Assembly (NCBI RefSeq): GCF_027587195.1 | Contig: NZ_JAPDDP010000002.1 | Location: 62,001-126,000, forward strand | Length of the DNA stretch: 64,000 bases | DNA from: Solirubrobacter phytolaccae | GTDB taxonomy: Bacteria; Actinomycetota; Thermoleophilia; Solirubrobacterales; Solirubrobacteraceae | Direction: 5' to 3' | In this document: in pieces, positions 41,207 through 45,793 of the stretch | Position numbering within the stretch: the first letter of the stretch is position 1 | Layout: each line of letters starts with the position of its first letter | The notes under the pieces: generated by a model | The model's input: the letters and a program-made list of their open reading frames with translations, nothing else | Databases searched by the model: none | What the model was told of the DNA's origin: nothing | Program-made: the position numbers and the translations under genes

Positions 41207-41869
41207 TCAGCGCGCGGTGCGCAGGTACTCGAGCACCGCGAGCACGCGGCGGTGATCCGTCGGCAGCGAGCTCGACAGCTCGAGCTTGCGGAAGATCCGG
41301 CTGACGTGCTTCTCGACCGCGTTCTCGGTCACGACCAGCTCCTCCGCGATCCCCAGGTTCGAACGCCCCTCGGCCATCGCCGCCAGCACGTCGAGCTCAC
41401 GCGGCGTGAGGTCATGGATCGGCCCCTGACGCCGGCTGCGGCCAAGCATCAGCCGCACGACCTCGGGATCCAGCGCGGTACCGCCCGCGGCGACGCGGCG
41501 GATCGCGTCGACGAACGCGTCCACGTCGCCGACCCGCTCCTTGAGCAGGTAGCCGACGCCCTGCGGGTCGTCCCCGAGCAGGTCGTTGGCGTAGGACTCC
41601 TCCAGGTGCGACGAGAGCACGAGCACACCCAGCCCGGGGAGCTCGGCGCGCAGCGTGCGCGCGGCACGCAGGCCGTCGTCCGTGCGGTCGGGCGGCATCT
41701 GCACGTCGACGATCGCGACGTCGGGCTTGTGGGCGCGCACCTTGCGCGCGAAGTCGTCGGCGTCACCGGCGCGGGCGACGATCTCGAAGCCCGCGTCCTC
41801 GAGCAGCCGCGCGATCCCCTCGCGCATCAGCACGTCGTCCTCGCCCATGACGATCCGCAGCGGCGTCAT
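41207..41869 (-). CDS. NarL/FixJ-family response regulator
   Basis: 220 residues. Receiver: acidic pair GEDD, phospho-Asp in VAIVDVQMPPD, Lys in YLLKERVG. LuxR-type HTH from about 150: LTPRELDVLAAMAEGRSNLGIAEELVVTENAVEKHVSRIFRKL. Start ATG 41869 (ATG 41881 also in frame). Probable partner of the HisKA_3 kinase at 39491-40459, separated from it by the BI-1 gene. Confidence 0.93.
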   Translation of the reverse strand: MTPLRIVMGEDDVLMREGIARLLEDAGFEIVARAGDADDFARKVRAHKPDVAIVDVQMPPDRTDDGLRAARTLRAELPGLGVLVLSSHLEESYANDLLGDDPQGVGYLLKERVGDVDAFVDAIRRVAAGGTALDPEVVRLMLGRSRRQGPIHDLTPRELDVLAAMAEGRSNLGIAEELVVTENAVEKHVSRIFRKLELSSSLPTDHRRVLAVLEYLRTAR

Positions 41870-41907
41870 GGGCGAGAACATATCGATGCGACTGGCCGCG
41901 ACGATGC

Positions 41908-43077
41908 TCAGATCTCGAGCGAAAGCTGCTCCGACGCTCGCGTGAAGGGATCCGCGAGCTCCTTCGTCGGGCGTTCCGCACGGATGCGCTGCCGCGCCTG
42001 CAGCAACGGGTCACTCGCGACATAGAAACGCCCTCGGCGCTCACCGACAGCCGTCAGCAGCCCCGCTTCGACCATCGCCTTGAGGTCTCGTGTCGCCGTG
42101 AGCTCTGAGATCTCCTCGCCTGATGAGAAGTCGACGGAGGCGCGGTACCGCGCGTTGCGTACGCGAAGACCGTAGGCCGCGTCCATCAAACCGGCTGCCG
42201 CGCGTTCCGGTAGCCGGTGCCGTTCGGCGAGCGCGACGGATGCGAGCCACAGCTCTTCGACCTCTTGGACGCGTCGGAGGTGCGTGCGTCCCTGTCGGTA
42301 GTGGGCGGTCAGGCAGAACCGCACCCACGGCCGCGCGTCATTCTCAGGATGCCAAGCGCCCTCACCCACCTGCGCCAGCACGTCGTAGTAGGCCTGCGTA
42401 TTGCGGCCGAGGTACTCCTCGATGCTCGAGAACACCGGAGCGACGATCTGCTCGCGAGCCAGGACGAGGGTCTGCAGTGCGCGGGCCATTCGGCCGTTGC
42501 CGTCACTGAACGGGTGGATCATCACCAGATTGAGGTGCGCGACCGCGGCCCGGAACAGCACTGGCGCGTCGCTTCGCTCCAGTTCGCGGATCATCTCGAC
42601 GATGAGTGCCGGGATCTCGTCACTCGGCGGGCCTTCATACACGATCGCGCCCTCGGGCTCTCGCCGGACCCAGATGGCTCCCGGCCGCCAACGCCCTGGA
42701 TTCTTCGCCAGGTCGTGCTTGATCATCATGAAATGAAGGGCCTTGAGCAGGCCTTCGTCGACCTTCGCCGTCTCGTCGTGCGCGTGTTGCAGCACGTACG
42801 TCATGGCGTCGCGATAACCCGAGACCGCCGACGCGGTCTCCGCCGACGCGTCGAGAACGTCATCACCGTCGACTGCGGCAACGACATCGTCGAGCGTGGC
42901 GTTGTAGCCCTCGATGCTGTTTGAGGCTTGAACGGCCCGCGCGAACGTCAGTCGACGCAGACTTCCGGCCCACCGCCGAGGCTCGGAGACACGGTGTCGA
43001 AGCTCCTCCCGGAGCTCGTCGATCATCCGTAGAACTTCGTTCTCGAGCTCTCCTGGAGATGGCGTCCGGAAGACCAT
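41908..43077 (-). CDS. Fic-family protein with C-terminal winged helix
   Basis: 389 residues. Fic core motif HPFSDGNGRMAR (catalytic His; phosphate loop) near residue 200. N-terminal inhibitory helix motif SNSIEGY (S/T-x-x-x-E-G), typical of class II Fic AMP-transferases that self-inhibit. The C-terminal 100 residues form a winged-helix domain (SSGEEISELTATRDLKAMVEAGLLTAV). Flanking loop GPPSDEIPALI. Probably AMPylates a protein target and binds DNA; whether target or autoregulation is unknown. Start ATG 43077 lies inside the palindrome 43074-43114; an upstream ATG at 43104 would translate the repeat itself. Confidence 0.9.
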   Translation of the reverse strand: MVFRTPSPGELENEVLRMIDELREELRHRVSEPRRWAGSLRRLTFARAVQASNSIEGYNATLDDVVAAVDGDDVLDASAETASAVSGYRDAMTYVLQHAHDETAKVDEGLLKALHFMMIKHDLAKNPGRWRPGAIWVRREPEGAIVYEGPPSDEIPALIVEMIRELERSDAPVLFRAAVAHLNLVMIHPFSDGNGRMARALQTLVLAREQIVAPVFSSIEEYLGRNTQAYYDVLAQVGEGAWHPENDARPWVRFCLTAHYRQGRTHLRRVQEVEELWLASVALAERHRLPERAAAGLMDAAYGLRVRNARYRASVDFSSGEEISELTATRDLKAMVEAGLLTAVGERRGRFYVASDPLLQARQRIRAERPTKELADPFTRASEQLSLEI

Positions 43078-43114
43078 GATCGAATGATAGATAATTTCTA
43101 TCATTCGATCATGG
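43074..43114. promoter_or_regulatory. perfect 18-bp-arm palindrome at the fic start
   Basis: CCATGATCGAATGATAGA (43074-43091), 5-nt centre TAATT, and its exact complement at 43097-43114. Far more AT-rich than the surroundings. It contains the fic start codon and lies 13 bp past the katG stop. The best reading is an operator bound by the C-terminal winged helix of Fic (autoregulation). It could also fold as a long RNA hairpin after katG, but no T-run follows. Confidence 0.75.
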
Positions 43115-43127
43115 CGAACCTCCGTGG

Positions 43128-45793
<2,666 letters not shown>

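What the first reader, a model, noticed from the sequence alone, without database searches (positions are those of the whole stretch)
43074..43114. 18-bp-arm perfect palindrome at the start of a winged-helix Fic gene
CCATGATCGAATGATAGA is followed after TAATT by its exact complement, an AT-rich island in very GC-rich DNA. It contains the fic start codon. The Fic protein has a class II inhibitory helix, the catalytic motif and a C-terminal winged helix, so it may be an AMP-transferase that also binds this palindrome to control itself, giving a self-limiting switch. The immediate neighbour is katG.
Basis: partly seen in the sequence, partly recalled or inferred. Interest (0 to 1): 0.62.

Follow-up and report, generated by a model that had tools for sequence, protein, structure and literature searches.

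The report
Self-control DNA site of Fic gene
A mobile Fic (AMP-transferring) enzyme gene carries at its start a perfect mirror-image DNA site, almost certainly the docking site through which the enzyme's own DNA-binding tail turns the gene down; relatives carry matching but differently spelled sites, so self-repression looks general in this enzyme family.

Summary
The palindrome is real (18-bp perfect arms, 5-bp spacer, 43074-43114) and far beyond chance. It is the only such site in the 7.7-Mb genome, even at 3 mismatches. Its 9-bp core (AATGATAGA-N5-TCTATCATT) recurs, more or less intact, at the start of fic in 9 of 11 clade members whose neighbouring genes differ. More distant Fic-winged-helix genes carry other palindromes at the same place, specific to the protein clade. 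Three genomes hold two fic paralogues, each with its own clade's site. In one clade the palindrome spans -35 to -10 of a promoter for a near-leaderless mRNA. A congeneric genome has the empty site: katG runs straight into the response regulator, so palindrome and fic came in together and katG is incidental. The protein is a class II Fic with a SoFic-like winged helix. Best explanation: a promoter operator bound by the Fic dimer's C-terminal winged helix, giving negative autoregulation of a potentially toxic, probably anti-phage, AMP-transferase. The precedent is CccR of Yersinia pseudotuberculosis, whose repeats lie 26 bp apart. Binding is inferred, not shown. New here: the compact operator over the start codon, and evidence that self-operators are widespread and diverge with the protein.

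The parts
43074..43114 (.). perfect palindrome, 18-bp arms, 5-bp spacer; proposed operator
43083..43105 (.). conserved operator core AATGATAGA-N5-TCTATCATT, recognisable in 9 of 11 clade I genes (window included)
43095..43103 (-). candidate extended -10 element TGATAGAAA inside the operator (TGATAGAWT in several orthologues)
   Evidence: by inspection; the consensus scan found no full sigma-70 match
41908..43077 (-). fic: class II Fic AMP-transferase with C-terminal winged helix, 389 aa
42907..42924 (-). class II inhibitory motif SNSIEG (residues 52-57)
   Evidence: S52, E56, G57 invariant
42481..42516 (-). catalytic motif HPFSDGNGRMAR (residues 188-199)
42016..42201 (-). winged helix (about residues 293-354; recognition helix about 325-337)
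41893..43125 (-). segment present here and absent in congeneric genome G002 (approximate ends): palindrome + fic as one inserted unit
43128..45341 (-). katG, upstream neighbour; incidental
41207..41881 (-). LuxR-type response regulator; directly follows katG in the empty-site genome

Best explanation
The palindrome is the operator of an autorepressed fic gene. A Fic dimer places its two C-terminal winged helices on the two arms (conserved core AATGATAGA-N5-TCTATCATT), covering the -10 region and start codon, so RNA polymerase cannot start; expression of a potentially toxic AMP-transferase is thereby held low and self-limited. The gene, a SoFic-like and probably anti-phage enzyme, moves between genomes together with its operator. 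Shown here: palindrome, uniqueness, conservation, clade specificity, placement over the promoter in a sister clade, co-insertion, winged-helix fold (predicted). Inferred: binding, repression, defence role.
For: (1) Core recognisable in 9 of 11 clade I genes (53-68% identity to the window's); half-site symmetry outside the start codon 43/54 against about 0.3 per position by chance. (2) Palindromes enriched at 52 homologous fic starts against in-gene stretches (p 3e-11), far-upstream stretches (p 3e-6) and other gene starts in the same loci (IR score >=8: 42% versus 4%, p 7e-11). (3) Sites follow the protein: genomes G099, G519 and G756 each hold a clade I and a clade B fic with different palindromes; a clade I matrix scores 15.7-30 bits leave-one-out on 8 of 9 clade I promoters and at most 2.1 on 22 clade B promoters; a Gemmatimonadota and a Nocardia fic that are sisters share a similar palindrome. 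(4) In clade B, 21 of 22 genes have TAnnnT 5-9 nt before the start (background 0.4%) and 16 have a -35-like hexamer upstream, mostly at 18 nt, with the palindrome between. (5) One site per genome here, at fic itself. (6) Empty site. (7) Winged helix, nearest in fold to DNA-binding repressors. (8) CccR precedent: self-repression through a promoter palindrome (PMC9755527).
Against: No binding data. Symmetry is weak in several orthologues (L140 3/6, L142 4/6 half-site matches), L005 has a 1-nt longer spacer, and L143/L144 lack the motif. Conservation of the left arm may partly be that of an extended -10. CccR uses arms 26 bp apart, so the dimer geometry would have to differ. No full sigma-70 promoter was found by consensus scan. 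The shuffles and rank tests treat related sequences as independent.
Confidence: 0.82

Rival explanations
1. The palindrome is the operator of another regulator of the host (a chromosomal repressor or a katG/Fur-linked regulator), not of Fic itself.
For: Fur and KatG are encoded next door; palindromic operators are common to many repressors.
Against: Single site in the genome, at fic; katG of relatives has no such site behind it; paralogous fic genes in one genome have different, clade-specific sites; sites follow the protein across host lineages.
Confidence: 0.08
2. It works as RNA: a terminator behind katG or a hairpin that hides the fic start codon in read-through transcripts.
For: The window copy would fold into an 18-bp hairpin (-29 kcal/mol) that contains the start codon.
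Against: No terminator-like site or T run; no Rfam match; hairpin stability is not kept in orthologues (-1.6 to -16 kcal/mol); in the sister clade the palindrome lies in the promoter, upstream of a near-leaderless start, so it would not be in the mRNA.
Confidence: 0.06
3. It is a scar or end of the mobile unit, or a product of palindrome-making mutation, without regulatory role.
For: The gene is an insertion relative to a congener (empty site; fic GC3 0.78 versus 0.95-0.97 in neighbours); arms outside the 9-bp core are symmetric mainly in this copy.
Against: No matching repeat at the other end of the insert was seen by inspection of the junctions; the core is conserved in unrelated locations and palindromes are placed over the promoter in a sister clade. 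Quasi-palindrome correction may explain the outer 9 bp only.
Confidence: 0.04

Closest known systems
CccR of Yersinia pseudotuberculosis (PMC9755527)
   Same: Class II Fic domain plus C-terminal HTH; represses its own promoter through palindromic sequences; the dimer is needed for binding.
   Different: CccR protects AGATAATCAT-N26-ATGATAATCT, with repeats 26 bp apart; here the arms are 5 bp apart and cover the start codon. CccR is a secreted T6SS effector; this gene is solitary between katG and a response regulator.
SoFic / Sofic (Shewanella oneidensis 3zcn, 3eqx; E. coli Sofic anti-phage, PMC12249575)
   Same: Best full-length structural match (Z 30.9, 3.0 A over 338 residues); PADLOC SoFic model E 2e-50; class II, C-terminal winged helix.
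   Different: About 19% identity; far below NCBIfam's SoFic equivalog cut-off (60.6 versus 550 bits). No room for an AS1-like small gene directly downstream (26-nt gap to the next gene). DNA binding by SoFic had not been shown as of PMC10628234 (2023).
CbFic2 of Coxiella burnetii (PMC10628234, 8cil)
   Same: Class II Fic with winged helix; DNA binding shown and stimulates (de)AMPylation.
   Different: No specific operator known; described target is histone H3.

Membership tests
Class II Fic AMP-transferases | Fic/DOC domain with HxFx(D/E)GNGRxxR | tested here: met
   Pfam Fic 60.1 bits versus 24; HPFSDGNGRMAR, core invariant
Class II Fic AMP-transferases | inhibitory (S/T)xxxE(G/N) helix N-terminal to the Fic core | tested here: met
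   SNSIEG residues 52-57; S52, E56, G57 invariant
Class II Fic AMP-transferases | AMPylation activity | not testable with these tools
   needs enzyme assay
SoFic equivalog / anti-phage Sofic | score above NCBIfam NF046030 cut-off | tested here: not met
   60.6 bits versus 550
SoFic equivalog / anti-phage Sofic | SoFic-like overall fold including C-terminal winged helix | tested here: met
   Z 30.9 over 338 residues to 3zcn
SoFic equivalog / anti-phage Sofic | protection against phage | not testable with these tools
   PADLOC SoFic model match only
CccR-like autorepressing Fic-HTH | C-terminal DNA-binding HTH | tested here: met
   predicted winged-helix fold
CccR-like autorepressing Fic-HTH | inverted repeats in own promoter | tested here: met
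CccR-like autorepressing Fic-HTH | 10-bp arms with 26-bp spacer | tested here: not met
   spacer 5 bp; footprint from PMC9755527
CccR-like autorepressing Fic-HTH | binding and repression by the protein itself | not testable with these tools
   needs EMSA/footprint/reporter

The most novel reading that the evidence does not exclude
Self-repression through compact, promoter-covering palindromes is the general control of solitary Fic-winged-helix (SoFic-like) enzymes across bacteria, with operator and winged helix co-diverging clade by clade; operator occupancy also sets enzyme state (as DNA does for CbFic2), so that phage-induced loss of DNA binding both derepresses and activates the toxin without any antitoxin gene.
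Probability: 0.2. Interest if true: 0.72.

Novelty: new variant of a known kind. Interest (0 to 1): 0.5.

Why it matters
The role of the C-terminal winged helix in SoFic-type enzymes is open: DNA binding had not been shown for SoFic (PMC10628234), and work on E. coli Sofic discusses the domain only as a regulator of toxicity (PMC12249575). The comparative data supply specific, testable operator sequences for several clades, suggest how a toxic solitary Fic gene can be carried and transferred without a separate antitoxin, and offer a natural series of co-diverging operators and winged helices for studying DNA recognition.

Tried and rejected
Terminator of katG: no T run or terminator-like site, and relatives' katG lack the palindrome. 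Known RNA element: no Rfam match. Regulon: no second site in the genome with up to 3 mismatches. katG partnership: empty site and unrelated neighbours of orthologues. Longer fic start at 43104: not conserved. A clear sigma-70 promoter was not found by consensus scan. Several proteobacterial SoFic-like loci (L060, L066, L083, L084, L107) showed no significant compact palindrome; long-spacer repeats like CccR's were not searched. Literature searches found no other described Fic autorepressor besides CccR.

Full report
OBSERVATION. The sequence reads CCATGATCGAATGATAGA-TAATT-TCTATCATTCGATCATGG at 43074-43114. It is the longest perfect inverted repeat with a short spacer in the window; 30 dinucleotide shuffles of the window gave maxima of 10-14 bp. 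It lies in a local AT-rich dip, is found once in the 7.7-Mb genome, and no other place matches the core even with three mismatches. The fic gene runs 43077 to 41908 on the minus strand; its ATG is inside the distal arm. The upstream katG stops at 43128, so the palindrome fills most of the 50-bp gap.

THE PROTEIN. The 389-aa product is a Fic protein (Pfam) with the class II inhibitory motif SNSIEG and HPFSDGNGRMAR. The AlphaFold model (pLDDT 94) matches SoFic over 338 residues including the C-terminal domain (Z 30.9, 3.0 A). The C-terminal domain folded alone (pLDDT 95) is a winged helix; nearly all its nearest solved structures are DNA-binding regulators such as RosR, Fur, CadC, SmtB and MarR types (Z 8.4-10.1), and members of the domain alignment hit several HTH families weakly. 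PADLOC's SoFic anti-phage model matches at 2e-50, but the NCBIfam SoFic equivalog cut-off is far from met.

THE SITE IN ORTHOLOGUES. Close orthologues (53-68% identity) were taken from other genera, families and orders of the class. In nine of eleven clade I genes, counting the window, GAWTGATAGA-N5/6-TCTATCATG-like sites overlap or abut the start codon. The left arm is nearly invariant; the right arm matches its mirror at 43 of 54 positions outside the start codon. Part of the left-arm conservation may be an extended -10 (TGATAGAWT), so operator and promoter are interlaced. Only the 9-bp core is conserved; the outer 9 bp of each arm are symmetric mainly in the window copy and may have been perfected by quasi-palindrome correction (inference).

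OTHER CLADES, OTHER PALINDROMES, SAME PLACE. Among 52 full-length homologues, inverted-repeat scores in -70..+10 exceed in-gene stretches (p 3e-11), far-upstream stretches (p 3e-6) and the starts of other genes in the same loci (42% versus 4% at score 8 or more). The tree and promoters show clade-specific sites: clade B GATTAGGCG..CGCCTAATC or TAGACGATTA..TAATCGTCTA; a Streptomyces/Nocardia clade TTGACGTAATGnTTACGTCAA; a Nocardioides/Isoptericola clade with TGTCCTAA/GAGACATTAGGACA repeats; sisters L045 (Gemmatimonadota) and L048 (Nocardia) share similar palindromes across phyla. Of 46 more distant Fic proteins from many phyla, 18 have a palindrome near the start at shuffle p of 0.05 or less. 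In clade B, 21 of 22 genes have TAnnnT 5-9 nt before the start codon (most at exactly 7; background 0.4%) and 16 have a -35-like hexamer, mostly 18 nt further up, with the palindrome between the two: an operator over the core promoter of a near-leaderless mRNA.

SITE FOLLOWS PROTEIN. Three genomes carry both a clade I and a clade B fic (G099: L005/L157; G519: L140/L163; G756: L142/L162); each copy has its own clade's site. A clade I weight matrix gives 15.7-30 bits leave-one-out on eight of nine clade I promoters (L005 fails because of a one-base longer spacer) and at most 2.1 on clade B promoters. This argues against a host regulator.

ORIGIN OF THE LOCUS. In congeneric G002 (KatG about 92% identical) the katG stop is followed after about 10 nt by the response regulator that in the window follows fic (junctions). 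fic has GC3 0.78 against 0.95-0.97 for its neighbours. Neighbours of orthologues are unrelated: P450, ion channel, transposase-like, YmdB/ABC transporter, tRNA ligase, NHL protein. So palindrome and fic travel as one unit and katG is incidental.

MECHANISM. Most likely a Fic dimer binds the two half-sites by its winged helices and blocks RNA polymerase: negative autoregulation. The precedent is CccR, which binds AGATAATCAT-N26-ATGATAATCT in its own promoter and represses itself about threefold (PMC9755527). CbFic2 shows that DNA can also alter Fic activity (PMC10628234). E. coli Sofic is toxic and anti-phage (PMC12249575), so keeping expression low is a plausible reason for self-repression. 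Binding, repression and the defence role remain inferred.

NOVELTY. A new variant of a known kind: Fic-HTH autorepression is known from one protein, with widely split repeats. A compact operator over the start codon, and evidence that self-operators are widespread and co-diverge with the protein, were not found in the literature searched.

Noticed in passing
L131 (genome G004, same genus), directly behind katG: At the same spot behind katG another insertion: an HTH-like protein gene and, beside it, a DUF6036 nucleotidyltransferase ORF (possibly AbiE-like), with its own long palindrome (CTAGCAAAGGTTCAGAT..ATCTGAACCTTTGCTAG) before a GTG start. The katG 3' end may be an insertion hot spot for toxin/defence genes.
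   Followed up: partly
L019, L020 (other Fic subfamily, MKSF(I/V)DLD...): A different Fic subfamily also has strong palindromes 14-55 nt upstream of its start (e.g. TAAACGTGCTAATCGC-CGCC-GCGATTAGTACGTTTA).
   Followed up: partly
L122 (G442): A Streptomyces/Nocardia-clade fic has AATGATA-N9-TATCATT, close to the clade I half-site but with a wider spacer; may be an intermediate or convergent operator.
   Followed up: no
L006, about 30-55 nt upstream of the start: A second, imperfect copy of the clade I site (AATGATATATAGATTCTATCTTTC) next to the main one, suggesting tandem operators.
   Followed up: no
43103-43124 (minus strand): GGAGG followed after a few nt by ATGATCGAATGA, a three-codon reading frame formed by the upstream arm; possibly meaningless.
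   Followed up: no
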